Source of the DNA: Verrucomicrobiaceae bacterium
GTDB taxonomy: Bacteria; Verrucomicrobiota; Verrucomicrobiia; Verrucomicrobiales; Verrucomicrobiaceae
DNA: 64,000 nt
Assembly: GCA_016795365.1 (NCBI GenBank)
Contig: JAEUHN010000009.1
Location: 62,001 to 126,000 of the forward strand
Direction: 5' to 3'
In this document: piece after piece, positions 5,701-36,458 of the stretch
Layout: each line of letters opens with the position of its first letter
Position numbering within the stretch: position 1 is the stretch's first letter
Notes under the pieces: model-generated
Seen by the model: only the letters and a program-made list of their open reading frames with translations
The model's database searches: none
Told to the model about the DNA's origin: nothing
Translations under genes and position numbers: made by a program

Positions 5701-7870
5701 ACTCAAAGCCACGCAGGCCGAGCTGGCGACGGCGCAGTCACAGTTGAGCGCCGTGGTGACGCAGAACTCGGAGAAGCACATCGAGCTGGCTGATCTTGAA
5801 GCCCAGCTCGCGCAGCGCGCCGAGGAACACGATCAACTCGCGGCCAAACACAGCGCTCTCGATGCCGCCTTGTTCGCGCTCACGGCTCAGCACGCGGATC
5901 ATTCAAATCGTTTGGCGCAAACGCAGGCTGCGTTCGCTGCCGCCGAACAATCGCTGGCCACCAAGCACGCCGAGGTGGCTGCTGCCGAGAAAACCCATGC
6001 TGGACTTCAACAGCAGAATCAGGTGCTCGACACCCGCCTTGCCGAGCTTGCGGACACGGAGCAAAAGCTGGCTGCGGTCAAAGCTTCGCTCGATCAGGCG
6101 AACAAGGAACTGGTGGCACAACGCACGATCTTCCAGAAACTGCAAGCCGAGTCCTCGACGGCACAGCAATCGCTCACGATGACATCGGGCGATCTCGAGA
6201 CAGCGAAGTCTCTGCTCGCCCGCACCATTGAGCAGCAGAAGCAAGTGGAGGTGGCTCTTCAGCAAGCCGACGCCGCTCGCAGAGAGGCAGATCATGCGAC
6301 CGCTGCTCTCCGCGCGGAGTCGGCCAGCCTGGAGAGGCTGATGCAGGACAAGCGGGCGGCGTTCGATGTCGAAGCGGCTGCCAAGCAAAAAGAACTCGAA
6401 GGCACGGAGGCACGTCTCGCCACGTCTGCCGAGAGACTGGCGGCCGCCGAAAAACGTCTGGCCGAGTTGGCCGATCTCGAGGCCCGTGTGGCAAATGCCA
6501 CGAAGGCGCTCGCCGATGCGGAAAAGCTACGTTTGCTCGAAGAGAAGACCTTGGCCGATCTGGCCAAGCAGCAGGACAAAGCGCGCAAAGAACTGACGGC
6601 GCTCGATGCGGAAGCTGCATCCACACGCGCCGCCGCAGACGACCATGCTCGCCGTGCGCAGGCTGAGGAGACTCGTGCCGTCGATGCCGAGAGGAGGCTG
6701 AAGGCTGCCGAACTGGCCCTCGCATCGGCGGAAGCGAAGTCGGCGGAAGCCCACGCTGCGCTCCAGGCCACGCTCGTTGAGCAGGATCGCGTGAAGGCTG
6801 GCATCCCGCAGTTGTCCGCCGAAGTGGCCACGCTCACGGCAGCCATCGCGAGCCTCGTTGCTCAGCGCGATGATCACTCCCGCCAGCTGCAGCAGATGGC
6901 AGCCAGCGCAGACCACGAGGTTAAAACGAAGGCTCAGCAGGTCACCGTCTTGCAGACCGAAGAAACGCGCCTCACTCAATCACTGGCGGCGAAGAAAGAG
7001 CAGGTCCGCGCGCTGGATGTGGATCTCAACGCCAAGCTGGACAAGCTCCAATCCGCCGAGCGAACGCTGCAGGAGATGGTGGGCACCAAGGCTTTGTCTT
7101 TGGCCGAAGCCGTGCGCGAACTGGAGAATCGCCAGCGCGACGCCACTCGAACGTTGCGCGAAGCAGGCCAGCAGGAGCTAGCCCTTCAGGCGAAGATCAG
7201 CTCGTTGCAGGAGGCCGTGAGCCGCGAGACGCAACGCGTGGAAAAGCTCAAACGCGATGGCACCTACGCCGAGGAGAAGACCAAGATGGCGCTGGCGGAT
7301 GTGGAAGGCCGCATCGCGGAATTCAATCGCATGGAGCAGGAGGCGATCGCCCGGGCGGAGACGGCTCGCCGCGAGATCGCTCGTCTGGAGCCGCGCCATC
7401 AAGAACTCACGGCCATCGACACCCAGGTGCGCCAGCTTCAAGAGATCGACCGCCGTCTGCGCGGTCAGCTGGAGGAACTCGAAGAGAAGCACGAATCCCT
7501 GCGCCGCGGCCTCGCCAGCGACGAGGCGACGGTGATGATGTTCGCCACCGATCTCATCAAGCGCATCGACTTGATCGACATGCTGATCCAACGCTACGCG
7601 GGACAAAATGGCGGTGTGGACCAGCAACTCCGCACGCTGCGTGCCGCTTTCGAAGACATCCTGCACCAGCACAGCGTGGTCGAATTTGATGTGCCCCCGA
7701 ACACGGAGATCGACATCGCTCTGCGCCAGCGCATCGCGGTGATCGAGAGCGAGCCCGGCGAATCCAAGGCCCGCGTGGTAGCGAGTTTCCGACCTGGCTT
7801 TGTTTATGCGCCAGCGGAAGGACGCGAAGTTGTTTTGAGGAAGGTTGAAGTAAAAACCTCCAGTCGCTAG
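2705..7870 (+). CDS. FHA-domain giant coiled-coil protein with GrpE-like C-terminus
   Basis: A 1721-residue protein in three parts. Residues 1-95 form an FHA phosphothreonine-binding domain, with SIGRD at 24-28, a conserved His at 44 and SSNGTFLNG at 62-70. Residues 96-200 are a Pro/Ala-rich linker. From about 200 to 1590 the protein is almost unbroken Ala/Glu/Lys/Gln coiled coil, including tandem 78-residue repeats. The last ~120 residues (about 1600-1715) look like GrpE, the DnaK nucleotide-exchange factor: a helix with DLIKRIDLIDML, a second helix with LRAAFEDILHQHSV, then a beta region ending in VVLRKVEVK, as in GrpE. No membrane segment is seen. An Hsp70 gene follows 39 bases downstream, which supports a co-chaperone role. 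The FHA call is firm; the GrpE likeness is by eye. Confidence 0.85.
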   Translation: MPYLAFNLNDGNEFVFDLLDERLSIGRDSKNDIVIDNSFISGFHAEFLKQADGAYEVVDLKSSNGTFLNGKRIERSRLKGGDRVQFGQLEARFRERAPKGLAPADTAKAATSTAAAAGKGMPARPDGRRGDTESVPTVSPKVPAPPAHITKPVAPAEGPAEKTSDITLPSRMLPTPAAPMPPPTAKMTPAPVTPARDEAPALRQELEKLRDQIAAETRRRDELVAISSQLEARKKDLAAAEAELEAKRKQAETFVKTQADLSIVQADLAKARAELAAAEQQSKDQKAAAAQLATLKKEIDATQVRLGGLQRDADEKSSLLKKHSTEEKQAADKLALLRDQIATTEGKLNEVSKQRSEAASALAQKQQAEQQSASEKLARVLAEVAAAEARLASAHDQAKTLTSGNAQLSGLQKEIESAQARLASVQKDSETQAAALAKQLAEKQAEIASTETALVAARQLLETTRDKAAKGANEQLASIQREISAAEKRMAQLKKDSDVKTQALEHQTSAEKSATEKLAKVQKELTAVEASLATTRQQLEADREKAAKMASEQLAALNKDIATAEQRLAAVQKDHEAKSAALAQQATTEQQTADKLTKLQSEVVAAESALTAARKQLEADREKAAKAAAEQQAAINQEIAAAEQRLASLQKDGEAKAAALQQQTTAEKATGEKLAKLQKEVASTESALAKAIETQAAVEKEAADKLAKLEQNLATTETTLKATRKQLEAEKAETARIAGAKAGAVETSAAIAALVEQRVALDAELAGLRDQIEASQERLLDLNKQGAKSIASSKAATEAETSRLQSLQAEAASVEASLAAKRAEFEQVSNEHARQLSDLGERVQSLQQHESTLGEKLLALAGGAGAFASVTHAIQALDDHHSTISAQKDELAAAIQALRAEQAAVNEQLAGDREAGAAQRSLVRTLTRQREEAEVLAKQAEARHEQARESLAATQKELADAQAAVKAEQATLDRLSDQTIAARTELQTVSDDLTQATAKLKATQAELATAQSQLSAVVTQNSEKHIELADLEAQLAQRAEEHDQLAAKHSALDAALFALTAQHADHSNRLAQTQAAFAAAEQSLATKHAEVAAAEKTHAGLQQQNQVLDTRLAELADTEQKLAAVKASLDQANKELVAQRTIFQKLQAESSTAQQSLTMTSGDLETAKSLLARTIEQQKQVEVALQQADAARREADHATAALRAESASLERLMQDKRAAFDVEAAAKQKELEGTEARLATSAERLAAAEKRLAELADLEARVANATKALADAEKLRLLEEKTLADLAKQQDKARKELTALDAEAASTRAAADDHARRAQAEETRAVDAERRLKAAELALASAEAKSAEAHAALQATLVEQDRVKAGIPQLSAEVATLTAAIASLVAQRDDHSRQLQQMAASADHEVKTKAQQVTVLQTEETRLTQSLAAKKEQVRALDVDLNAKLDKLQSAERTLQEMVGTKALSLAEAVRELENRQRDATRTLREAGQQELALQAKISSLQEAVSRETQRVEKLKRDGTYAEEKTKMALADVEGRIAEFNRMEQEAIARAETARREIARLEPRHQELTAIDTQVRQLQEIDRRLRGQLEELEEKHESLRRGLASDEATVMMFATDLIKRIDLIDMLIQRYAGQNGGVDQQLRTLRAAFEDILHQHSVVEFDVPPNTEIDIALRQRIAVIESEPGESKARVVASFRPGFVYAPAEGREVVLRKVEVKTSSR
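4118..4819 (+). repeat. Tandem 78-codon repeats inside the coiled-coil gene
   Basis: Three successive units start at 4118, 4352 and 4586, exactly 234 bases apart. Each encodes a pattern of EQ-x(6)-I-x(3)-EQRL-x(3)-QKD followed by AAL-x-QQ-T-x-E and then RKQLEADREKAAK; the third is diverged at its end. A partial, older unit lies just upstream. The spacing keeps the coiled-coil heptad in register and points to growth of the rod by internal duplication. Confidence 0.75.
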
Positions 7871-7909
7871 ATTTTCTGCTAACATCCCTCCACTCCCTCC
7901 CTTTTCCTT

Positions 7910-9397
7910 ATGGCTGAATTTGTTGGCATCGATCTTGGCACCACGCTCTCCGGGCTGGCCTATCTCAAAGCAGACGGCAACCCTGAGATCGTCCCGAATG
8001 CAGATGGTGAGCGCCTCACGCCTTCCGTGGTTTATTTTGATTCCCATGAAGATGTGAAACTCGTAGGCACCGCTGCCCGCGACGGCGGTGATCCTGATCG
8101 CACCATCTTCCAGGTGAAGCGCTACATGGATGATCCTGAGCACGTCATCAAAATCGATGGCAAGGACTGGACGCCCTCCGAGATCTCCGCGCTCATCCTT
8201 TCGAAGCTCAAGCGTGATTGCTCCAAGATCGTGGGCGACATCAACGAGGTGGTGATCACCGTGCCGGCGAACTTCAATGAACTCGCCCGCAAGAGCACCA
8301 TCGCCGCAGCTGAGATGGCCGGGCTCAAGGTGCGACGCCTGGTGAACGAGCCGACCGCAGCGGCGGTTTACTACGCCCACAGCCAGGGCGTGCAGGGCCG
8401 CGTGCTGGTCTTTGACCTCGGCGGCGGAACGCTGGATACCACCATCCTCGAGGTGGTGGGTGACAACATTCGCATCCTCACCTCTGAAGGCGCGCGCCAC
8501 CTCGGCGGTGGCAATTTCGACGAGATTCTGCTCGAGGCCTACGATGAGCAGTATCGCAAGCAGGTGAACGCCGCGCTTTACAATGACGAACGTCAGCGCC
8601 GTCGCTCGCTACAGGCTGCTGAGGATGCGAAGAAGATGCTTTCGAAGCTGCAGCGCGTGTCCGATACCATCGGGAACGACACCTCCGGCCTCGCCCGCAT
8701 CGACCTCACTCGCGAGTCCTTCGAGAAGCTGATCCGCAACATGATCACCCGTGCGCTGATGCTGGTGGAGCAGGCGCTCGATTCCGCCAAGCTGAAGCCG
8801 AGCGACATCGATCACGTCGTGCTCGTGGGTGGATCATCCCGTATTCCCAAGGTGAAGCAGATGCTCGAGAAGCACTTCGGCAAGGCTCCCAAATCCTGCG
8901 GCAATGTGGACGAATGCGTAGCCCTCGGTGCCGCTTTGTTCGCCAAGAAATCTGCCCGCATCCAGGAGGTGTGCAATCAGAGCTACGGCACGCTGGCCAT
9001 GATCTACAATGCGGCCACCGGTGAGGAGAAGGTGCAGAACTCGATCGTGATCCCCAAGAACTCCTCCATCCCGTGCAGCCGCACGCAGATGTATGTGACC
9101 AGCGAGGACAACGAGCGCGTGATCGAAGTGGATATCACCCAGGGTGAGGACGACGATCCGAAGTATGTCGATGTCATCGGTCGCATCACGTTGGAAGTGC
9201 CTCCGAATCGCCCGAAAGGTTGCGAGGTTGCCGTGACCTTCAGCTACGACGAGAACCAGCGCGTGCGCGCACTCGTTGTGGACAAACAATCTGGACGCAG
9301 CCGTGAAGTGGCCGTGTCTTACAAAGGTGCGGGTGTGCTCTCCGACGAAGAGCTGAAACGCCGCAGCAGTTTCCTGCGCCAGATGCGCATCGAGTAA
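7910..9397 (+). CDS. Lidless Hsp70/DnaK-like chaperone
   Basis: A 495-residue Hsp70 relative. The ATPase domain is complete: GIDLGTTLSGLAY near the start (phosphate 1), DLGGGTLDTTILEV (phosphate 2) and VLVGGSSRIPKV (adenosine). A short beta substrate-binding domain follows from about residue 380 to 480. The helical lid and C-terminal tail of DnaK (usually about 610-640 residues in total) are missing. The phosphate-1 motif has Leu where DnaK usually has Asn. The gene lies 39 bases after the FHA/GrpE-like gene and 21 bases before a small helical protein, so the three are very likely one operon. Clients are unknown; a partner inside an FHA-scaffolded complex is inferred. Confidence 0.9.
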   Translation: MAEFVGIDLGTTLSGLAYLKADGNPEIVPNADGERLTPSVVYFDSHEDVKLVGTAARDGGDPDRTIFQVKRYMDDPEHVIKIDGKDWTPSEISALILSKLKRDCSKIVGDINEVVITVPANFNELARKSTIAAAEMAGLKVRRLVNEPTAAAVYYAHSQGVQGRVLVFDLGGGTLDTTILEVVGDNIRILTSEGARHLGGGNFDEILLEAYDEQYRKQVNAALYNDERQRRRSLQAAEDAKKMLSKLQRVSDTIGNDTSGLARIDLTRESFEKLIRNMITRALMLVEQALDSAKLKPSDIDHVVLVGGSSRIPKVKQMLEKHFGKAPKSCGNVDECVALGAALFAKKSARIQEVCNQSYGTLAMIYNAATGEEKVQNSIVIPKNSSIPCSRTQMYVTSEDNERVIEVDITQGEDDDPKYVDVIGRITLEVPPNRPKGCEVAVTFSYDENQRVRALVVDKQSGRSREVAVSYKGAGVLSDEELKRRSSFLRQMRIE

Positions 9398-28383: not shown

Positions 28384-30066
28384 TCAGGAGCCGCGCAGGA
28401 GACGGCTCCACTCCTCATCGTTCAACGGGAAAGGACGCCCCTTGAAGGTGGCGTAGTCGATCTCGAAATCGCGGGGTGGCGGGTTGCGGCGCTTGATCTG
28501 TTTCAACCGATACGTCGCCTCCCAGAAGAACAGAATGCGTTGCTTGAGCACGCCAATCTCGCGGGCTTCGGGCTTGTTCAGCATCTTGCTGCTTCGTTGC
28601 GGCAGCCAGTCGTTGTAGCGACGGATGGACTTGGGGAATTCCGTGACCAAGCTGGTGCCGCCGTCCGTGCTGTCCCAGGCATCGCACAGACGGATGAAGC
28701 CCGCGAGATCGCCAGGCTTCGTGCCGGTTTTCTCGCGATAGAAGTCTTCCAACCACCAGCCCAGGTGGCCCATGGTGGTGAGGCCAGACTCATGAAGCTT
28801 CAGCGATCCATCGCGGTAAGCCTTCTCGTAAAGCGTGTTGAAGGCCGTGATGCGATGCTGGTCGAGCTTCAGCCTCACGAGGAAGCGCGCATCACAGACC
28901 AGGACCACGGCCGTGAGCACCAGTGCCAGCCGTGACCACAGCGGCGACGTCGAAGCCGCAGGTGCCGACTTCACCCCCATCACGGAAGCCACCACGCCCC
29001 ACCAGACCATCTCCACGAAGTAATAATCGAACTTGCCCGAATACAGCGTCAGCAAGGTGGCGCATCCCAAGGCCGCGAGCAGCGCCCCGCCCCAGGGCCT
29101 GCGCCACGCCATGATCAGGCCCAGACCTGCTAGGGCTCCTCCCGCGCCAAAGTAGAGGCGCTGCCAGGAATCGTTGTAGCCACTGTGCGACCATTGCAGC
29201 CAACTCACGCAGTGAATGGCGATCTGCGAGCCCACGAGCATGGCCACCATGGCCAGCCACGGATGGATGGCGCGCGGACCCGGCTTGATCAGACCGCCGA
29301 GGCCAAAGCCCGACACCAGCGCCGCGAGACAAAGCGCGAACGTGATGTGCCGCGTGCCCAACCGCGAGAAGTCGAAGGTGGAGTGATTCACCCAAGCCTG
29401 CCCGGTGTTCGCGTTCATGCCGCTCTTCACGACGAGGAACCACATGCCTCCGGCGACGAGCAGGGCCGCGGGCCGCCAGTTCCTTTGCTTCCAGCCTTCC
29501 TCCAGCATGAACCAAAAAGGCAGGGCCAGCCATCCGATGGCGCTCTGGCGATTGGCCAGTGCCACGGCCCAGAAGAGAAAAAAGGCCCACCAGTTGCGCC
29601 GGCCAAAGGCCCAGATGCACATCCAGAAGCAGCCCCAGTAAAGCGCGGCCCCGGTGAACATCTGGAACATGAAAAGCACCGTCGGAGACGCCAGCAGCAC
29701 GAGCGCGAGAGGCACCCGACGCACCGGACCGAGGCCTGCTTCTTTGAGCCACAAGGTGAGACCCAAAAAGGCGAGGCACGCGGCCCCTGCCAGCTGCCCG
29801 TGCACTGCGATGGACATGCTGTCGGTGAGCGCGAACACGATGGCGGCCAGCGACGAGGTGGAGGCTGCCCACGGTGCCAGATACTCCGAGGTCCAGGGGC
29901 GGCCGCGATGGAAGGTCTCGACCACGGATTTCAGATACCAGAAGTCGTCATCCATCACGACGACCATGGATGGCAGCATCAGCCAGACGAGGAGGCCAAA
30001 GGCACCAGCGGAACCCAGCAGAACCAGCCAGGTGAGGCGAGTGGATGAAGACGATGAAGCAGTCAT
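28384..30066 (-). CDS. Polytopic membrane protein, probable GT-C glycosyltransferase
   Basis: A 560-residue protein with about ten membrane segments through residue ~400 and a ~150-residue soluble tail. Right after the first membrane segment is VVVMDDDFWYLKSVVETF, an acidic motif in the first outer loop, as in many GT-C enzymes that use lipid-phosphate sugars. The tail (DFYREKTGTKPGDLAGFI, RRNPPPRDFEIDY) has no known motif. It overlaps the gene upstream by 4 bases (ATGA), so the two are translated together. Two other proteins of similar layout lie next to it. Function is inferred. Confidence 0.72.
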   Translation of the reverse strand: MTASSSSSTRLTWLVLLGSAGAFGLLVWLMLPSMVVVMDDDFWYLKSVVETFHRGRPWTSEYLAPWAASTSSLAAIVFALTDSMSIAVHGQLAGAACLAFLGLTLWLKEAGLGPVRRVPLALVLLASPTVLFMFQMFTGAALYWGCFWMCIWAFGRRNWWAFFLFWAVALANRQSAIGWLALPFWFMLEEGWKQRNWRPAALLVAGGMWFLVVKSGMNANTGQAWVNHSTFDFSRLGTRHITFALCLAALVSGFGLGGLIKPGPRAIHPWLAMVAMLVGSQIAIHCVSWLQWSHSGYNDSWQRLYFGAGGALAGLGLIMAWRRPWGGALLAALGCATLLTLYSGKFDYYFVEMVWWGVVASVMGVKSAPAASTSPLWSRLALVLTAVVLVCDARFLVRLKLDQHRITAFNTLYEKAYRDGSLKLHESGLTTMGHLGWWLEDFYREKTGTKPGDLAGFIRLCDAWDSTDGGTSLVTEFPKSIRRYNDWLPQRSSKMLNKPEAREIGVLKQRILFFWEATYRLKQIKRRNPPPRDFEIDYATFKGRPFPLNDEEWSRLLRGS

Positions 30067-31904
30067 GGCAGGGTGAGTTTCACTTCACCGGACAACCGCC
30101 AGAAGGTGCCGGTTTTCACATCGAGCACATAGGCCCGGAAGGTCGCCTCGCCCTTGGGCAACGGCTTGCGGCTGAGATTCATGGGGATCGCCGTGAAGCG
30201 ACAGGTCTCCTTGCCGGTGAGGGCTTCATAAGCCCATCCGATGCGGCCCTGCTGCTCACGTGCATCCTTTCGTTCAGCGAGTTTCGCTTCGCGCAGCCGT
30301 CGGGTGGCCAGGCCCTGCCATTGCTCTGGTCCATCCTTGGCCTGGACGGAAATGACCACAGCACCCGCTGTCTTTTTGGTCTTTCGATTGAGCGCCCAGC
30401 CGCGGAGATTCACGCCGGTGGGAGCGAGGCTGCCGGACTTGATCTGGCCCTCCCAGAGCTGCGGATCGTCCAGCACTTTGGCATCGGCGACGAGGGGGCT
30501 CTTAATGGTCTTGATGCCCAGCAGGCCCAGGCTTTCCAGCTCGTCGAGCATGGTGAAGATGCGGGGTCCGGCGGTGGGGGCCACGCCATCGAGCGGCACG
30601 GGCTCCACGGCCACCTGACGAAGCGCGGCCGCAGCCTCGATCTGCTGGCCGCCCGCGTGCATTCGCTCCGCGTCCCAGAAGCCCTGGAGCGCTCCCACCA
30701 CGCCGCCCCAGACGACGGGGATCAGCACCCACAGCGTGCGCGCCACTTTCTGCCAGCGCGCGACGAAGTGCCCCATGAGTGCCAGCAGCCCGATGTGCAG
30801 CCACAGGGTGTAGGCAGGGTAGCGGCACTCGAAGGGAATGGCATACGGGTGCTCCGCGCGCGCCATGGCCAGGGCGCAGGCATTGCCGAGTCCAAACAAC
30901 CCGCACAGCAGCCAGGGCACCACCTTGGGCCAGTCGAGTTCAGCGCGGCGTTTCCACAACACGCCCAGCACCACGACCCAGAGCAGCAACGCACCCGCAC
31001 CGATCCATGGCGACACGGACCACTGGGCTTGGATGCGATCCTCCTTTTCCAACGTAAGCAGCAGTTCCGTCATCGGTGCTGCGATCACGCGCAGGAGGAA
31101 GAGACCATACATGAGGGGCTTGGTCGCAAAGCCCTGCACCATCTCGGACTCCGTCGCCACCTTGGACTCGGGCCACTCCAAAAAGAAATACCAGACCGTG
31201 CCAGCGAACATCGCCAGGAAGATCGCCGCACTGCTCAGCCAGCGCCGATCCTTCCATCCCGAGCGCACCGCCTCGACGATCAACATGAGCACGATCAATC
31301 CCCATGAGAGCCAGCCATTGAGGAAGGAAAGCGTGGCAGCAGCGGCACACAGGCACGCGACCAGCGTGCGCCACACGAGCGGCCAGCGAGTCTGCATCAC
31401 CGTCAGGGCGCCGATGCTGCCCCACACGACCACAGCATAACAAATCTGCACACCCCACGCCCAGTTCATCCATTGGAACGGCGACAACACATGCCCCACG
31501 GCGAGCCAGGCAACGAGGTAGCGCCACAGCACCGGACCCGCGAGACGGCAGCGGACTAACCACAGCAGCATGGTGGCGGTGAAGGCACCAAACATCACAC
31601 ACACGAGCGACTCCACCCGGAGGTCGCCACCGAAGAACCGGAAGACGATCCAATTGAAAAGATGAGGCACGTCATGCCGGCTGTCGTTGCCGGGCGCATG
31701 GATGAACTCCCAGAGGCTGCCCGTGCCCTGTAGCATCTTCATGTAGGGCTTGAGCGACATGAACCAAGCATCGGCATTTGGCACCAGGATGCTGTGATTC
31801 CAGGCCAGGTAGATCGGCATCACGAGGAAGACCAGGGGCAGGAACCAGGGCCAGGCGCGATTGGTGAGCAAGTGAGTGAGACGATCCATGAAGGCAGAAT
31901 CCAT
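30063..31904 (-). CDS. Polytopic membrane protein, probable GT-C glycosyltransferase
   Basis: A 613-residue protein with an N-terminal membrane segment (PWFLPLVFLVMPIYLAW) and an outer loop with ILVPNADAWFMSLKPYMKMLQ. About ten more membrane segments follow to residue ~400, then a ~200-residue soluble C-terminal domain. The C-terminal part reads as beta-rich (RGWALNRKTKKTAGAVVISVQAK), as in periplasmic modules of such enzymes. Its layout matches the proteins at 28384 and 32055. It is divergent from the latter with a 150-base gap and forms a two-gene unit with the former. Acceptor and donor unknown. Confidence 0.72.
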   Translation of the reverse strand: MDSAFMDRLTHLLTNRAWPWFLPLVFLVMPIYLAWNHSILVPNADAWFMSLKPYMKMLQGTGSLWEFIHAPGNDSRHDVPHLFNWIVFRFFGGDLRVESLVCVMFGAFTATMLLWLVRCRLAGPVLWRYLVAWLAVGHVLSPFQWMNWAWGVQICYAVVVWGSIGALTVMQTRWPLVWRTLVACLCAAAATLSFLNGWLSWGLIVLMLIVEAVRSGWKDRRWLSSAAIFLAMFAGTVWYFFLEWPESKVATESEMVQGFATKPLMYGLFLLRVIAAPMTELLLTLEKEDRIQAQWSVSPWIGAGALLLWVVVLGVLWKRRAELDWPKVVPWLLCGLFGLGNACALAMARAEHPYAIPFECRYPAYTLWLHIGLLALMGHFVARWQKVARTLWVLIPVVWGGVVGALQGFWDAERMHAGGQQIEAAAALRQVAVEPVPLDGVAPTAGPRIFTMLDELESLGLLGIKTIKSPLVADAKVLDDPQLWEGQIKSGSLAPTGVNLRGWALNRKTKKTAGAVVISVQAKDGPEQWQGLATRRLREAKLAERKDAREQQGRIGWAYEALTGKETCRFTAIPMNLSRKPLPKGEATFRAYVLDVKTGTFWRLSGEVKLTLP

Positions 31905-32054: not shown

Positions 32055-33926
32055 ATGGTCTGGTTGAAAAATCTCTGCTCCCAACCGCTAGCCCGCCGTC
32101 TCGCCCTTGTTGTGCTGACGTTGCTTCCCTTCGCTGCCATGGCTCGCTTGGTCCACGTTTATGCCGTGGACACGCCATTCAACGATGACTGGACCTTCCT
32201 GGAGGACTGGATGAAATGGAAACAGGGACTCCTCAGCGTGGGCGATCTCTTCAGTGCGCACATGGAGCACCGCGTGACAGTGGCGCGTGCGCTGGCACTC
32301 CTGGGCCATTGGATTGGCGGCAGTGATCTGCGCTGGCAGAATGCCTACACCATCCTTCTGCTGCTGGGCATGGGCTGGAATCTGGTGCATGTGCTGCGCC
32401 GCACGAGCGGACGGACCTTCGAGCAGTCGTGGCTCCCTCTGGTGCTGATGTCCGCGGCTCTGTTTTGCTCCATCCAGTGGCAGGGCCTACTCTGGCCGAT
32501 TCTGTTCGAGGCCTACATCCCTGTCTTCTCGCTCACGCTTTGCCTCCGCATCTGGCTCTCCGAAGTGAAGCCCTGGAACGCGCTCGCGATTAGCGTGCTG
32601 GCCGTGCTGGCGGGCATGTGGAGCTTTGGCAATGGGCTCATCAGCTGGGTGCTGGTGCCCGCCTTGTTCTGGCTGTGCCGGGCCGATCTTTCACTGCGCC
32701 AGCGCTGGCAGCTCACGGGCGTTTGGTTTGCCTGCGCCGTTACTTCGGGCGTGCTTTACTCGATGAACTTCGGCAATGCCGCGCCCTCGCAGTTCTCGTA
32801 TGGCCAGGGCTCGGAGGTGACGGCGGGACACAGCGTGACGGAGTTCCTGAGGCATTTGTCCGGCGCTCCGCGATTCATCACCGCGCTGCTCGGCAGCCAT
32901 CTCTCGCGCGGCTTGCATCTGGACAATCTGGAGGTAGCCGAAGCCGCTGGCTGGCTCTCGCTCGCGGTCTTTGGCATCGCCTTGGCGGAACTTTGGCGCG
33001 GGCGCAAGGATGCCGCCTGGGTTCGAACGCTAGTGCCTTGGCTGCTGCTCGGACTTTTCAGCATCGGCACGGCGGTGCTCATTGCGGCGGGTCGTTTGTG
33101 GCTGAGCAAGTCGGGCACCCTGGCGATCACGGTCCGTTACGTGAGCCACGCGATTCCACTCACCGTAGCCCTGATCGCGCTGATGTGGATCATTGGCCGA
33201 CGTTGGGCGGAGCGAACTCCGGCCTTGCGCCTGCCTGGCGGTGTAGCGGTGGGAGCGCTGTTCATGCTGCTGCTTTCGCAGTGGGTGTATGGCGCGCAGC
33301 ACATGCGCCTGTGGCAGGAGTCCCGGCTCCAAGGCCGCGCCCTGCTGCTCTTTGCCAAGCTCCTGCCGAACTCCGATGCCCTGGGTCCCGTCGCCGCCGA
33401 TGGTGCCTACTGCCAGAAGCTGGCGCTGGAGATGGACAAGCTGGACATGATGAGCCCCTCGCTCATGGACTCGCTGAAGCTCAGCCGTTTCAAAGTGATC
33501 CGCGAGGACCTGCCGCAGCAGCGTGCCCGATTCGACGAGCTGCTGGTGAAGTCCGATGGCACCATGCACGCGACCGGTTACGCGGAACTACCCAGTGGCC
33601 GACCTGCCGACCTCGTGCTCTTCACCACTCGTAGCGGATCGAACCAGGAGACCATCTTTGCCATGGGCGTGCTGGAGAGCGTGCCACGCTACCTTTACTA
33701 CTCGACGAAGCGCGATCGTGAGTTCCTCGCGATCCCGTCCTACACACCCGAGTGGACAGCTCGGTGGCTGGGGCCTTTGACCACCTTCAGCGTGCCCAAG
33801 CAAGACTCGGAGATCGACGCCTGGGCGCTTGATGTGGACAAGATGCGTGTCTATCGAATCGCCGACGACCGCCTGCGGGGCAGCACAAAATTCCCGAAGG
33901 GCCTCTTCCCCAATTCCGACCGATGA
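32055..33926 (+). CDS. Polytopic membrane protein, probable GT-C glycosyltransferase
   Basis: A 623-residue protein with an N-terminal membrane segment (RRLALVVLTLLPFAAMARLV) and then VYAVDTPFNDDWTFLEDWMKW, an acidic first outer loop like those of its two neighbours. About ten membrane segments follow to residue ~410 and a soluble domain of about 200 residues ends the protein. It heads a four-gene chain in which each stop overlaps the next start as ATGA, so it is tightly linked to the amino-sugar genes. A likely role is moving a lipid-linked sugar onto a glycan outside the inner membrane. Confidence 0.73.
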   Translation: MVWLKNLCSQPLARRLALVVLTLLPFAAMARLVHVYAVDTPFNDDWTFLEDWMKWKQGLLSVGDLFSAHMEHRVTVARALALLGHWIGGSDLRWQNAYTILLLLGMGWNLVHVLRRTSGRTFEQSWLPLVLMSAALFCSIQWQGLLWPILFEAYIPVFSLTLCLRIWLSEVKPWNALAISVLAVLAGMWSFGNGLISWVLVPALFWLCRADLSLRQRWQLTGVWFACAVTSGVLYSMNFGNAAPSQFSYGQGSEVTAGHSVTEFLRHLSGAPRFITALLGSHLSRGLHLDNLEVAEAAGWLSLAVFGIALAELWRGRKDAAWVRTLVPWLLLGLFSIGTAVLIAAGRLWLSKSGTLAITVRYVSHAIPLTVALIALMWIIGRRWAERTPALRLPGGVAVGALFMLLLSQWVYGAQHMRLWQESRLQGRALLLFAKLLPNSDALGPVAADGAYCQKLALEMDKLDMMSPSLMDSLKLSRFKVIREDLPQQRARFDELLVKSDGTMHATGYAELPSGRPADLVLFTTRSGSNQETIFAMGVLESVPRYLYYSTKRDREFLAIPSYTPEWTARWLGPLTTFSVPKQDSEIDAWALDVDKMRVYRIADDRLRGSTKFPKGLFPNSDR

Positions 33927-35068
33927 GCACCTCTCCAGCCCCCTCTCTGTTTACCCATTTTCCGATCGAGGACTACCGTCATCACGAGGCGGAAATTGAT
34001 GCGGCGCTGCGGACGATGCTTCATGGCGGGCACTACATTCTCGGACCTGAAGTGGATGCGTTTGAGCGTGAGTTCGCCGCGTTCATCGGCGCACGGCACG
34101 CCATCGGAGTGGCCAATGGCACGGATGCGATCGAGCTGATTCTGCGTGCTCTGGACATCGGGCCGGGCGACCGCGTGGTGGTGCCCTCGCACACGGCGGT
34201 GGCGAGCGCTTCGGGCATCTCACGAGCAGGCGCAGAGCCCGTGTTTGTCGATGTCGATCCCCTCACCTGCACGATGTGCCCGGAGGCATTGGAAGCATTG
34301 CTCGCTTCCGATTTTGGCCAGGAGGTGAAGGCCGTGCTCGCTGTTCACATCTATGGTCAGCCCGTCGCCTGGAGCGCGCTCAAGTCCGTCGCGGACAAAC
34401 ACGGAGTCCTGCTGCTCGAAGACTGCGCACAAGCTCATGGAGCCACCTTCGAAGGAAACAAAGCGGGCGCTCTCGGTCTCGCCGCCGCGTTCAGCTTCTA
34501 TCCCACTAAGAACCTGGGAGCCATCGGCGATGGCGGCGCGATCACCACCAGCGATGATGCGCTGGCGGAGCGCATTCGCGTCATCCGCCAGTATGGCTGG
34601 AAAGAGCGCTATATCAGCCACTGCGAAGGTGTGAACAGCCGTCTGGATGAAATGCAGGCCGCCATTCTCCGGGTGAAGCTCCGGACCCTGCCAGCACAGA
34701 TTCGGCAGCGGCGTGCTGTAGCAGCCGCGTATGCCCGCGGACTTGCCGGGCTGCCAGGGGTGGACGCCCCGGTGGATCAGCCAGGCTGCACCCATGCCTA
34801 CCACCTCTACGTCATCCGATGTGCGGCACGGGACGCGCTGATGAAACACCTCCAGGAGCAGGGCGTGCCTGTGGCGCTCCACTATCCAGCTGCGATCCAT
34901 CAGCAGCCAGGTTACGCACACATCACTGCGCGCTCACCCGCGCTGCCGCAGACGGAAATGGTGGTGAGCCGGATCCTGACTCTGCCGCTTCATCCCTACC
35001 TCTCGCCTGAGGCTGTCACGGCGGTCTGCCAGGCCATCCATAGCTTCGCCCAATCTCAGCCGCGATGA
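33923..35068 (+). CDS. DegT/DnrJ/EryC1-type sugar aminotransferase
   Basis: A 381-residue PLP enzyme that puts an amino group on a nucleotide keto-sugar. PLP-binding Lys is in SFYPTKNLGAIGDGGAITT, preceded by the LLLEDCAQAHGA motif with the Asp. FPIEDYRHHEAEIDAAL and HAIGVANGTDAIELILRAL are typical of the family. The nearby FdtA-like isomerase makes a 3-keto product, so this is probably an FdtB/QdtB-type enzyme making a 3-amino-3,6-dideoxyhexose. Its start overlaps the membrane protein's stop by 4 bases. Confidence 0.93.
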   Translation: MSTSPAPSLFTHFPIEDYRHHEAEIDAALRTMLHGGHYILGPEVDAFEREFAAFIGARHAIGVANGTDAIELILRALDIGPGDRVVVPSHTAVASASGISRAGAEPVFVDVDPLTCTMCPEALEALLASDFGQEVKAVLAVHIYGQPVAWSALKSVADKHGVLLLEDCAQAHGATFEGNKAGALGLAAAFSFYPTKNLGAIGDGGAITTSDDALAERIRVIRQYGWKERYISHCEGVNSRLDEMQAAILRVKLRTLPAQIRQRRAVAAAYARGLAGLPGVDAPVDQPGCTHAYHLYVIRCAARDALMKHLQEQGVPVALHYPAAIHQQPGYAHITARSPALPQTEMVVSRILTLPLHPYLSPEAVTAVCQAIHSFAQSQPR

Positions 35069-36021
35069 ATGCCCCCGCGCCAGACCCCATCGTCAGCTTC
35101 GTGGTCCCGCTCTACAACACGGGCACGGCGCTAACGAAACTGATGGATGCCTTCCGCCAGCTCCAGGTGGAGGGCGGATTCGAACTTGTGCTCGTGAACG
35201 ACGCCAGCCCCGATGGCACCGGTGCTCGCGCTGCGGAGATGGTGCGTGACATGCCATGCCCGGTGACCTTCGTGGACATGGCCAGAAACTTCGGTGAGCA
35301 CGCTGCCGTGCTGGAGGGCTTCCGTCACACCCGTGGACGATTCGTGGTCAACCTGGATGATGACTTGCAGAACCCGCTGTCCGAAGCCCTGAAGCTGCTC
35401 GAACATCTCAAGACTCACGAGTGCGAGGTAGTCTATTCCTACTACGAGGAGAAGAAGCATCACTGGTTCCGCAACTTCGGCAGCTGGCTGACGAATGCCT
35501 GCGCCACCTTCCTCCTCGACAAGCCGCGTGATCTTTACCTCTGCAGCTTCCGCGGCATGAGACAAGAGCTGGTGGAGCGCATCACGCAGTATCGCGGACC
35601 CTATCCCTATGTGGACGGCCTCATCCTCGGGGCGACCAACCGCATCGATCGTCTGCTCGTCGATCACGCCGAGCGTGACGATGGCTCCAGCGGCTACACC
35701 TTGCGCAAGCTGGTGCGCCTGTGGATGAACATGTTCTTCAACTTCAGCGTCATGCCCCTGCGAGTGGCGAGCGTGCTCGGCGGCGTGCTATGTGCCTTCG
35801 GAATCCTGATGCTGTTGTCTGTGTTGGTTGAGCACTACTTGTTAGGCCGACCCACGCCGGGCTGGAGTTCGCTGATGGCGGTGGTATCCATCTTCTCGGG
35901 AGCCCAGCTCCTGATCCTGGGGCTCATCGGTGAGTATCTCGGACGCGCCTACATGACGGTCTCCGGCAAGCCTCAATCCCTGATCCGTAAGGTCGTCGTT
36001 CATCATCCATCCAAGGCATGA
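35065..36021 (+). CDS. Family 2 glycosyltransferase, GtrB/dolichol-phosphate-mannose type
   Basis: A 318-residue enzyme with an N-terminal GT2 domain (VSFVVPLYNTG, LVNDASPDGTG, NLDDDLQNP carrying the DXD-like acidic motif) and two C-terminal membrane segments (LRVASVLGGVLCAFGILMLL and LMAVVSIFSGAQLLILGLIG). Enzymes of this layout put a sugar onto undecaprenyl phosphate at the inner membrane. Its stop overlaps the isomerase start by 4 bases. A link to the amino-sugar made by its neighbours is inferred from the operon. Confidence 0.92.
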   Translation: MNAPAPDPIVSFVVPLYNTGTALTKLMDAFRQLQVEGGFELVLVNDASPDGTGARAAEMVRDMPCPVTFVDMARNFGEHAAVLEGFRHTRGRFVVNLDDDLQNPLSEALKLLEHLKTHECEVVYSYYEEKKHHWFRNFGSWLTNACATFLLDKPRDLYLCSFRGMRQELVERITQYRGPYPYVDGLILGATNRIDRLLVDHAERDDGSSGYTLRKLVRLWMNMFFNFSVMPLRVASVLGGVLCAFGILMLLSVLVEHYLLGRPTPGWSSLMAVVSIFSGAQLLILGLIGEYLGRAYMTVSGKPQSLIRKVVVHHPSKA

Positions 36022-36458
36022 CTCCGGGGATCATTATCACAGAGACTCCCGTGCGCGGGGTGAAGATCTACGAGACACGTCGCATCATCGACCACGATCG
36101 TGGTAATCTCACCGTGGCGGAGTTCGGCGAGGAGCTGCCCTTCGTGCCGCTGCGCTACTTCATCACCTACGAGATCCCTAGCTCGGCCACGCGCGGCGAG
36201 CACGCTCACAAGGAGTGCGAGCAGTTCCTGATTTGCACACGCGGCAGTTGTTCGGTGCTGGTGGATGATGGCACTCACAAGCAAGAGTTCCATCTCACAG
36301 CGCCCACGATCGGCATCTACGTGCCGCCCATGGTGTGGGCCACGGAATACAACCACTCCTTCGACAGCGCCTTGATGGTCTTCGCCTCGCATCGCTACGA
36401 TCCTGCTGACTACATCCGCGAGTATGATGAGTTCCTGCGGCTGGTGAAACAGGACTGA
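36018..36458 (+). CDS. FdtA/QdtA-type dTDP-4-keto-6-deoxyhexose isomerase
   Basis: A 146-residue cupin of the WxcM/FdtA family, which turns dTDP-4-keto-6-deoxyglucose into the 3-keto isomer. Catalytic His residues are in TRGEHAHKECEQFLIC, and the later VPPMVWATEYNHS fits the family. It is the last gene of the chain starting at 32055. With the DegT-type aminotransferase it points to dTDP-Fuc3N- or Qui3N-like sugar. No acetyltransferase (FdtC/QdtC) follows, so the sugar may stay unacetylated or be modified elsewhere. Confidence 0.9.
   Translation: MTPGIIITETPVRGVKIYETRRIIDHDRGNLTVAEFGEELPFVPLRYFITYEIPSSATRGEHAHKECEQFLICTRGSCSVLVDDGTHKQEFHLTAPTIGIYVPPMVWATEYNHSFDSALMVFASHRYDPADYIREYDEFLRLVKQD

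What the first reader, a model, noticed from the sequence alone, without database searches (positions are those of the whole stretch)
32055..36458. Four-gene ATGA-linked cassette for an amino-sugar
Three successive stop/start overlaps link a GT-C-like membrane protein, an aminotransferase, a GtrB-type transferase and an FdtA-type isomerase. The set would make a dTDP-3-amino-deoxyhexose, load it on undecaprenyl phosphate and move it outside. No acetyltransferase is present, so the amine may be free, giving a positively charged surface sugar.
Basis: partly seen in the sequence, partly recalled or inferred. Interest (0 to 1): 0.5.

Follow-up and report, generated by a model that had tools for sequence, protein, structure and literature searches.

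The report
Split operon for cationic amino sugar
These four genes are part of a gene set, found in many relatives as one operon, that probably makes an unacetylated, likely methylated amino sugar and mounts it on the cell surface, much as some bacteria add a charged sugar to resist antimicrobial peptides.

Summary
In detail: four ORFs (32055-36458), three ATGA overlaps, an aminotransferase (AT), an ArnC/GtrB-like GT2 and a PF05523 ketoisomerase; the first gene is an unassigned membrane protein. The reading holds in part. RmlA and RmlB lie elsewhere in the genome; no close FdtC/FdtD-type acetyltransferase was found. But these four genes are not the natural unit. In one genus of the same family the set is a same-strand operon AT-methyltransferase (MT)-GT2-FdtA-histidine kinase-response regulator-TMTC-like membrane protein (17 of 42 family loci complete; others cut or varied). 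In the window's genome and its genus-mate it is split: AT-GT2-FdtA here, MT-kinase-regulator-TMTC-like elsewhere. FdtA and MT co-occur (both in 40, neither in 22 of 68 family genomes). In the tree clade of this FdtA (45 rows) the fused acetyltransferase domain is degenerate (10) or not seen (35). Best reading: a dTDP-3-amino-3,6-dideoxyhexose, probably N-methylated and still cationic, loaded on undecaprenyl phosphate and transferred outside by a GT-C enzyme under two-component control: Arn-like, not an Arn member. N-methylation, acceptor, charge and the GT-C identity of gene 1 are inferred; some relatives have neither MT nor an intact acetyltransferase domain.

The parts
32055..33926 (+). Gene 1: 623-aa multi-pass membrane protein, putative GT-C glycosyltransferase (NDDW in the first loop)
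   Evidence: No Pfam/NCBIfam hit. A protein of the g1/n1 group heads the block in 8 of 42 family loci: 3 match g1 best (L130, L164, L165; 23-24%) and 5 match n1. AlphaFold model unusable, pLDDT 43.
33923..35068 (+). Gene 2: DegT/DnrJ/EryC1/StrS sugar aminotransferase (381 aa), probably acting at C3
   Evidence: PF01041 1.9e-113; best PDB 2oga (1.6e-97), then 7b0d, 3frk QdtB, 3nyu WbpE
35065..36021 (+). Gene 3: GT2 polyprenyl-phosphate glycosyltransferase, ArnC/GtrB-like, two C-terminal hydrophobic segments
   Evidence: PF00535 8.6e-20; ArnC model 153 bits, below its 529 cut-off; PDB ArnC 7.7e-38; hydrophobic segments
36018..36458 (+). Gene 4: dTDP-4-keto-6-deoxyglucose 3,4-ketoisomerase (PF05523), related to the isomerase half of FdtD, no acetyltransferase domain
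   Evidence: PF05523 1.1e-49; best PDB 4zu4/4mzu, 'WxcM-like protein' (FdtD by recall); tree; H62 and H64 in 45 of 45 clade rows
33923..33926 (+). ATGA overlap gene1/gene2
35065..35068 (+). ATGA overlap gene2/gene3
36018..36021 (+). ATGA overlap gene3/gene4
30063..31904 (-). n1: 613-aa membrane protein, homologue of gene 1, divergent; possibly a further transferase of the system
   Evidence: 27% over 186 aa to gene 1, 2e-6; 34-42% to proteins heading the block in L153, L155, L159, L161, L163
28384..30066 (-). n2: 560-aa membrane protein, ATGA-overlapped with n1; weakly ALG10-like family
   Evidence: 33-51% to proteins of L156, L161, L162, L184; two relatives hit DIE2_ALG10 at 2.2e-4 and 0.013, below its cut-off

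Best explanation
The window holds one half of a split system for a cationic amino sugar. RmlA and RmlB (elsewhere) make dTDP-4-keto-6-deoxyglucose; gene 4 moves the keto group to C3; gene 2 aminates C3; the unlinked methyltransferase (contig C10) most likely methylates that amine; gene 3 loads the sugar on undecaprenyl phosphate; it is flipped; and a GT-C-type transferase (the TMTC-like protein beside the methyltransferase, and/or gene 1) puts it on a surface acceptor. The histidine kinase and NarL-type regulator of the second half control it. Shown by sequence: gene families, substrate enzymes, lack of a close FdtC/FdtD-type acetyltransferase, conserved operon in relatives, co-occurrence. Inferred: N- rather than O-methylation, flipping, acceptor, charge, regulation, and galacto configuration.
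For: Operon: 42 family loci gave AT-MT-GT2-FdtA-HK-RR-TMTC complete in 17, plus cut or varied forms; AT directly before MT in 31 of the 32 blocks with MT; GT2 beside FdtA in 41 of 42. Split halves in this genome (window; L215 5859-10495) and genus-mate G156 (L149; L219). In G206 and G212 the split falls elsewhere and keeps AT-MT together. Co-occurrence in 68 family genomes: 40/4/2/22, Fisher 8.6e-12; less circular, of 11 genomes whose FdtA block has no MT, 8 carry it elsewhere, against 2 of 24 FdtA-less genomes, p 2.6e-4 (my first count, 7 of 10, had missed G119). Own MT groups with the G156 MT inside the operon MT family. HK at E<=1e-85: 36 of 44 FdtA+ and 4 of 24 FdtA-. AcT: of 45 rows in the FdtA clade, 10 have a fused domain, all without the ND..P(R/K)S loop, and 35 show none. 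RmlB 479 and RmlA 473 bits, over cut-offs. The TMTC-like family keeps FDD, RP, KE and HRSY sites that fit motifs in PMC7801869 (passages), where ArnT is the solved protein most similar to TMTCs.
Against: No biochemistry. The MT is a generic class I enzyme: 3bxo, an N,N-dimethyltransferase, is only a 3.6e-5 hit over the SAM domain, so N-methylation is not shown. Three f1 genomes (G142, G087, G162), G194 (FdtA fragment), and G062, G040, G036 (f4) and G121 (f3) have FdtA but no MT at 1e-15. Where the MT lies apart it is not always beside an AT: not in this genome, G156, G025, G113 or G028. G151 has the operon without FdtA. Co-occurrence is partly mere linkage and is not corrected for phylogeny; the HK threshold was set after seeing the scores. 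In L011-L013 (other phylum) a short fused hexapeptide domain without the loop sits next to a separate intact acetyltransferase gene, so a degenerate fused domain alone does not prove an unacetylated sugar; such separate genes were sought genome-wide only in the window's genome. The TMTC-like label rests on motifs read by eye; Pfam/NCBIfam see only TPRs; hhalign against the gene 1 family gave probability 1. His95 of FdtA is Ala here. No flippase is assigned; two GtrA proteins lie elsewhere.
Confidence: 0.57

Rival explanations
1. The amine stays free: dTDP-3-amino-3,6-dideoxyhexose is used unmodified and the methyltransferase acts on another part of the glycan or on the acceptor.
For: No close FdtC/FdtD-type acetyltransferase; L156, L157, L158 and L184 (f4) have AT-GT2-FdtA without MT or AcT in the block, and three of those four genomes (G062, G040, G036) have no MT at 1e-15; the MT is unlinked here.
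Against: AT and MT adjacent in 31 of 32 MT-bearing blocks and kept together in G206, G212 and G151.
Confidence: 0.2
2. The MT O-methylates the sugar or glycan and the amine is acylated by another, unlinked enzyme, so the residue is neutral.
For: Class I MTs include O-methylating enzymes; a hexapeptide-type hit exists in the genome (32%, 3e-7, contig C30); L011-L013 show that a separate acetyltransferase gene can stand beside a degenerate fused domain.
Against: The C30 hit lies in a stretch with a pseudaminate-type gene set (my reading of the ORFs); in the window's clade no intact domain was seen fused to FdtA.
Confidence: 0.16
3. The residual hexapeptide domain in relatives is a changed acyltransferase, and the lineage uses another N-acyl group; in the window that step has been lost or moved.
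For: The domain is retained in 10 of 45 clade rows and still has hexapeptide repeats.
Against: All 10 lack the ND..P(R/K)S loop present in 20 of the 21 rows that I class as intact; none is seen in the other 35, the window included (one of these, L123, is cut at a contig edge).
Confidence: 0.07

Closest known systems
FdtA/FdtB/FdtC and bifunctional FdtD pathway for dTDP-Fuc3NAc
   Same: Ketoisomerase and 3-aminotransferase on dTDP-4-keto-6-deoxyglucose; 4mzu/4zu4 (FdtD, by recall) is the nearest solved isomerase; same AT-GT2-isomerase neighbourhood in other phyla (L014-L018, L020, L023).
   Different: No acetyltransferase domain; in 40 of 44 FdtA-positive family genomes a methyltransferase is present, linked or not.
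Arn (L-Ara4N) pathway under PmrAB
   Same: DegT aminotransferase, ArnC-like undecaprenyl-phosphate loading, a likely ArnT-related GT-C, a two-component system (Arn parts recalled).
   Different: dTDP-3-amino hexose instead of UDP-Ara4N; ketoisomerase and MT; NarL-type regulator. Formylation/deformylation genes not tested.
dTDP-mycaminose/desosamine biosynthesis (DesV/TylB, Tyl1a, TylM1/DesVI; names recalled)
   Same: 3-aminotransferase (2oga is the best PDB hit), 3,4-ketoisomerase, methyltransferase.
   Different: Product goes to a lipid carrier, not a macrolide; the MT is not recognisably DesVI.
TMTC O-mannosyltransferases
   Same: Membrane part plus TPRs, DD/RP/KE/RxxY-like sites.
   Different: Bacterial; donor sugar presumably an amino sugar; homology shown only by motif reading.

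Membership tests
PF05523 sugar 3,4-ketoisomerases | Profile match over cut-off | tested here: met
   168 bits against 23
PF05523 sugar 3,4-ketoisomerases | Catalytic His49/His51 (PMC2943079, passages) | tested here: met
   H62, H64; 45 of 45 clade rows
FdtA with the His95 inverting signature | His at FdtA position 95 (Arg in retaining enzymes; PMC2943079) | tested here: not met
   Ala108; A in 42, T in 3 of 45; FdtD-type rows G 9, A 3, T 1, S 1 of 14. R28 aligns with Y17 of QdtA 4o9e, which is R in 4zu7 (column mapping mine)
FdtD bifunctional enzymes | N-terminal acetyltransferase domain | tested here: not met
   Protein has 146 aa, isomerase only
DegT sugar 3-aminotransferases | PF01041 match and alignment through the PLP-lysine region | tested here: met
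   (TKN aligned with GKN of 2oga; the lysine's role is recalled)
DegT sugar 3-aminotransferases | Transamination at C3 of a dTDP-keto sugar | not testable with these tools
   needs an assay
ArnC/GtrB polyprenyl-phosphate GT2 | GT2 domain plus two C-terminal membrane segments | tested here: met
ArnC/GtrB polyprenyl-phosphate GT2 | NCBIfam ArnC equivalog cut-off | tested here: not met
   153 against 529 bits: relative, not ArnC
Arn/PmrAB system | OmpR-type PmrA regulator (recalled) | tested here: not met
   Regulator has a GerE/LuxR domain, kinase HisKA_3
Arn/PmrAB system | ArnA, ArnD, ArnE/F | not tested
   not searched for
Mycaminose-type N,N-dimethyltransferase | Orthology to TylM1/DesVI | tested here: inconclusive
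   3bxo at 3.6e-5 over the SAM domain
GT-C glycosyltransferases (gene 1) | Profile or fold match to a GT-C family | tested here: inconclusive
   No Pfam hit; model pLDDT 43; hhalign to the ALG10-like n2 family probability 4
TMTC-like GT-C (second half, outside the window) | DD in EL1, YRP, KE, DW, RxxY motifs and C-terminal TPRs | tested here: inconclusive
   DD, RP, KE, HRSY invariant in 10 sequences and TPRs present against PMC7801869 passages; read by eye; the DW motif was not identified

The most novel reading that the evidence does not exclude
A family of Verrucomicrobiota carries an Arn-like surface-charge system of a new chemistry: the acetylation step of the Fuc3NAc pathway has decayed and been replaced by a methyltransferase, giving an undecaprenyl-linked N-methylated (mycaminose-like) 3-amino sugar that a TMTC-like bacterial GT-C places on surface proteins or lipids under a dedicated two-component system; in the window's genus the operon is split in two.
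Probability: 0.35. Interest if true: 0.75.

Novelty: new variant of a known kind. Interest (0 to 1): 0.6.

Why it matters
If true, a sugar class I know (recalled) from macrolide antibiotics serves as a cationic surface decoration in a phylum with little-known envelopes, and bacterial TMTC-like proteins gain a candidate donor sugar. It also shows how an operon split hides a missing enzyme: the window alone suggests a free amine, the relatives point to a methylated one.

Tried and rejected
AlphaFold of gene 1 with n1 and n2: pLDDT 43, not searched further. hhalign of the gene 1 family against the n2 family and the TMTC-like family: no usable match. MT identity by Pfam, NCBIfam and PDB: generic class I only. 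Free amine as the lead reading: demoted after the MT was found in this genome. A fixed four-gene cassette: rejected because the genus-mate lacks gene 1 there.

Literature searches (listings only, mostly capped lists): (8 of 8 listed; 12 of 12; 20 of 124; 15 of 100; 15 of 28; 20 of 26; 20 of 150; 15 of 739; 8 of 48), 88 (8 of 37). None of the listed titles names this operon; the library is open-access only, so this is weak evidence of novelty. Passages read: PMC2943079, PMC8040287, PMC7801869. The FdtD and WlbB papers are not held; what I say of FdtD is recalled, apart from its title in a reference list.

In the 42-locus tally: the window, the G194 fragment and second FdtA copies L141 and L143. 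AcT/MT labels on the tree were set by hand; of the 35 rows labelled as without AcT, L123 has only 22 bases upstream and cannot be judged. Of the 41 hexapeptide rows I class 21 as intact and 10 as the clade's degenerate fused domains; the other 10 are further hexapeptide proteins, among them short fused domains of L011-L013. One search's count of unlinked MTs (7 of 10) left out G119 and was redone.
Full report
Observation. The four ORFs and three ATGA overlaps are as described. Gene 2 is a DegT aminotransferase whose best solved relatives are 2oga (DesV, by recall), 7b0d, QdtB and WbpE. Gene 3 is a GT2 enzyme with two C-terminal hydrophobic segments, nearest ArnC. Gene 4 is a PF05523 ketoisomerase, nearest the isomerase domain of 4zu4/4mzu (FdtD by recall). 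Gene 1 matches no family; it is related to n1 on the other strand, which overlaps n2 by a fourth ATGA.

Substrate and missing steps in the genome. The genome (6.74 Mb, 55 contigs, 97% complete) has one PF05523 match, an RmlB over its cut-off on contig C10 (479 bits, cut-off 365) and an RmlA over its cut-off on C32 (473 bits, cut-off 361). Two GtrA-type proteins lie elsewhere. An FdtD-type acetyltransferase domain used as query finds at best 32% identity (3e-7) on C30, in a stretch that also holds ORFs reading as a pseudaminate-type cluster (my reading). That the genome is verrucomicrobial is inferred from its genus-mate G156, whose contig matches that of KLAP44, titled Verrucomicrobiota.

Context outside the order. 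Of the loci of named genomes (80 kept of 82), 14 were read for neighbours. In seven the order is AT-GT2-[acetyltransferase-isomerase fusion] (L014-L018, L020, L023), in L018 and L023 followed by a GtrA-like ORF (my reading). In L011-L013 the isomerase carries a short hexapeptide stretch without the usual loop, and a separate intact acetyltransferase gene follows.

Context in the order and family. PF05523 occurs in 74 of 288 genomes of the order. I read the neighbourhoods of 76 loci, L119-L194, three of them without a blast hit to gene 4. In family f1, 42 cassette loci besides the window gave: AT-MT-GT2-FdtA-HK-RR-TMTC in 17; the same cut by contig ends or shortened, or with one more HK, in others; GTC-AT-MT-GT2-AcT-FdtA in 5; other forms once each. 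GT2 adjoins FdtA in 41; MT is in 32, directly after AT in 31. A protein of the gene 1/n1 group is in 8 blocks (3 nearest gene 1, 5 nearest n1) and a TMTC-like one in 23, never both in one block, which suggests that they do the same job.

Split operon. The window lacks MT, HK, RR and TMTC. All four are in the genome, adjacent, on C10 (L215 5859-10495, minus). The genus-mate G156 has the same split (L149 and L219) and lacks gene 1, n1 and n2 at the first locus. In G206 and G212 the split falls elsewhere, with AT-MT apart from GT2-FdtA-HK-RR-TMTC. In G151 AT-MT-GT2 is followed by HK-RR-TMTC, and no FdtA was found in that genome.

Co-occurrence. Of the 68 family genomes held, 40 have FdtA and MT, 4 FdtA only, 2 MT only, 22 neither (Fisher 8.6e-12). 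Much of this is plain linkage, so the better test takes genomes whose contiguous FdtA block has no MT: 8 of 11 have MT elsewhere (6 of 7 without blocks at contig ends; 5 of 6 if G119, whose MT is 5-6 kb upstream, is also left out), against 2 of 24 genomes without FdtA (p 2.6e-4, 2.5e-4 and 8.3e-4). Neither test is corrected for phylogeny. The kinase (E<=1e-85, a limit chosen after seeing a gap in the scores) is in 36 of 44 FdtA-positive and 4 of 24 FdtA-negative genomes. Against: G142, G087, G162, G194 and, outside the family, G062, G040, G036 and G121 have FdtA but no MT at 1e-15, and unlinked MTs of this genome, G156, G025, G113 and G028 do not stand beside an AT.

Acetyltransferase decay. 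Of 21 rows that I class as intact, 20 carry ND..P(R/K)S, L022 not; all 10 fused domains of the window's FdtA clade lack it, and several are shortened. In an FdtA tree of 84 rows (quick method, 139 columns, many forks open) the window falls in a 45-row clade (SH-aLRT 96) that lies with FdtD-type rows; 10 of the 45 have the degenerate domain, 35 show none, L123 among them being cut. Other FdtA genes of the order, outside this clade, do have intact acetyltransferases beside or fused (L143, L166-L169, L174, L176, L177). The simplest history is an FdtD-like ancestor whose acetyltransferase decayed and was lost. MT presence does not track this exactly.

Residues. His49 and His51 equivalents are H62 and H64 in 45 of 45; the position that PMC2943079 links to inversion (His95) or retention (Arg) is Ala108 here (A 42, T 3) and mostly Gly in FdtD-type rows (9 of 14). 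Tyr17 of QdtA (4o9e) aligns with R28 here; 4zu7, a QdtA chain with R there and H for the later Arg, is recalled as the mutant turned towards galacto. I lean to galacto (Fuc3N-like), weakly.

Last step. The TMTC-like family has TPRs (one member, three) and invariant FDD, RP, KE and HRSY sites in 10 sequences. PMC7801869 (passages) gives DD, SHKSYRP, KET(Q)xxT, DW and ERxxY as TMTC motifs and says that ArnT is the most similar solved homologue of TMTCs. This fits a lipid-linked sugar transferase, but profile methods see only the TPRs. Gene 1 remains a putative GT-C; its fold could not be modelled.

Mechanism and comparison. The set reads as an Arn-like device with a different sugar: aminotransferase, ArnC-like loading, GT-C transfer, two-component control. 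It is not an Arn member: the regulator is NarL-type, the sugar is a dTDP-hexose, and the Arn formylation genes were not sought. It resembles mycaminose biosynthesis in its AT, isomerase and MT, but the MT is not recognisably DesVI. N-methylation is inferred from AT-MT adjacency, co-occurrence and acetyltransferase loss.

Verdict. Observation confirmed; interpretation partly supported and extended. New variant of a known kind. After checking, confidence in the best explanation went from 0.58 to 0.57, and the neutral-residue rival from 0.15 to 0.16, because of the L011-L013 arrangement; the changed-acyltransferase rival went from 0.08 to 0.07.

Noticed in passing
window 28384-31904 (-): Two further large membrane proteins, overlapped by ATGA and divergent from gene 1; n1 is homologous to gene 1. 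All three are absent at this place in the genus-mate (L010/L149).
   Followed up: partly
L224 8444-15285 (G151): AT-MT-GT2-HK-RR-TMTC without FdtA, and no FdtA found in that genome: incomplete assembly or another isomerase.
   Followed up: no
L143 (G063:C43): A second, intact FdtD-type fusion in a genome that also has the AT-MT-GT2-FdtA form.
   Followed up: no
L193 (G194): FdtA fragment with stop codons beside the HK-RR pair: a decaying copy.
   Followed up: no
L221 5709-12339 (G025): An MT-HK-RR group flanked by two TMTC-like genes in a genome whose FdtA block is only GT2-FdtA.
   Followed up: no
L216 4302-9808 (G000:C30): Cluster that reads as pseudaminic-acid biosynthesis: this genome probably also makes a nonulosonate surface sugar.
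   Followed up: no
L011-L013 around 7545-8941: Isomerase fused to a short hexapeptide domain lacking the usual loop, with a separate intact acetyltransferase gene directly after it.
   Followed up: no
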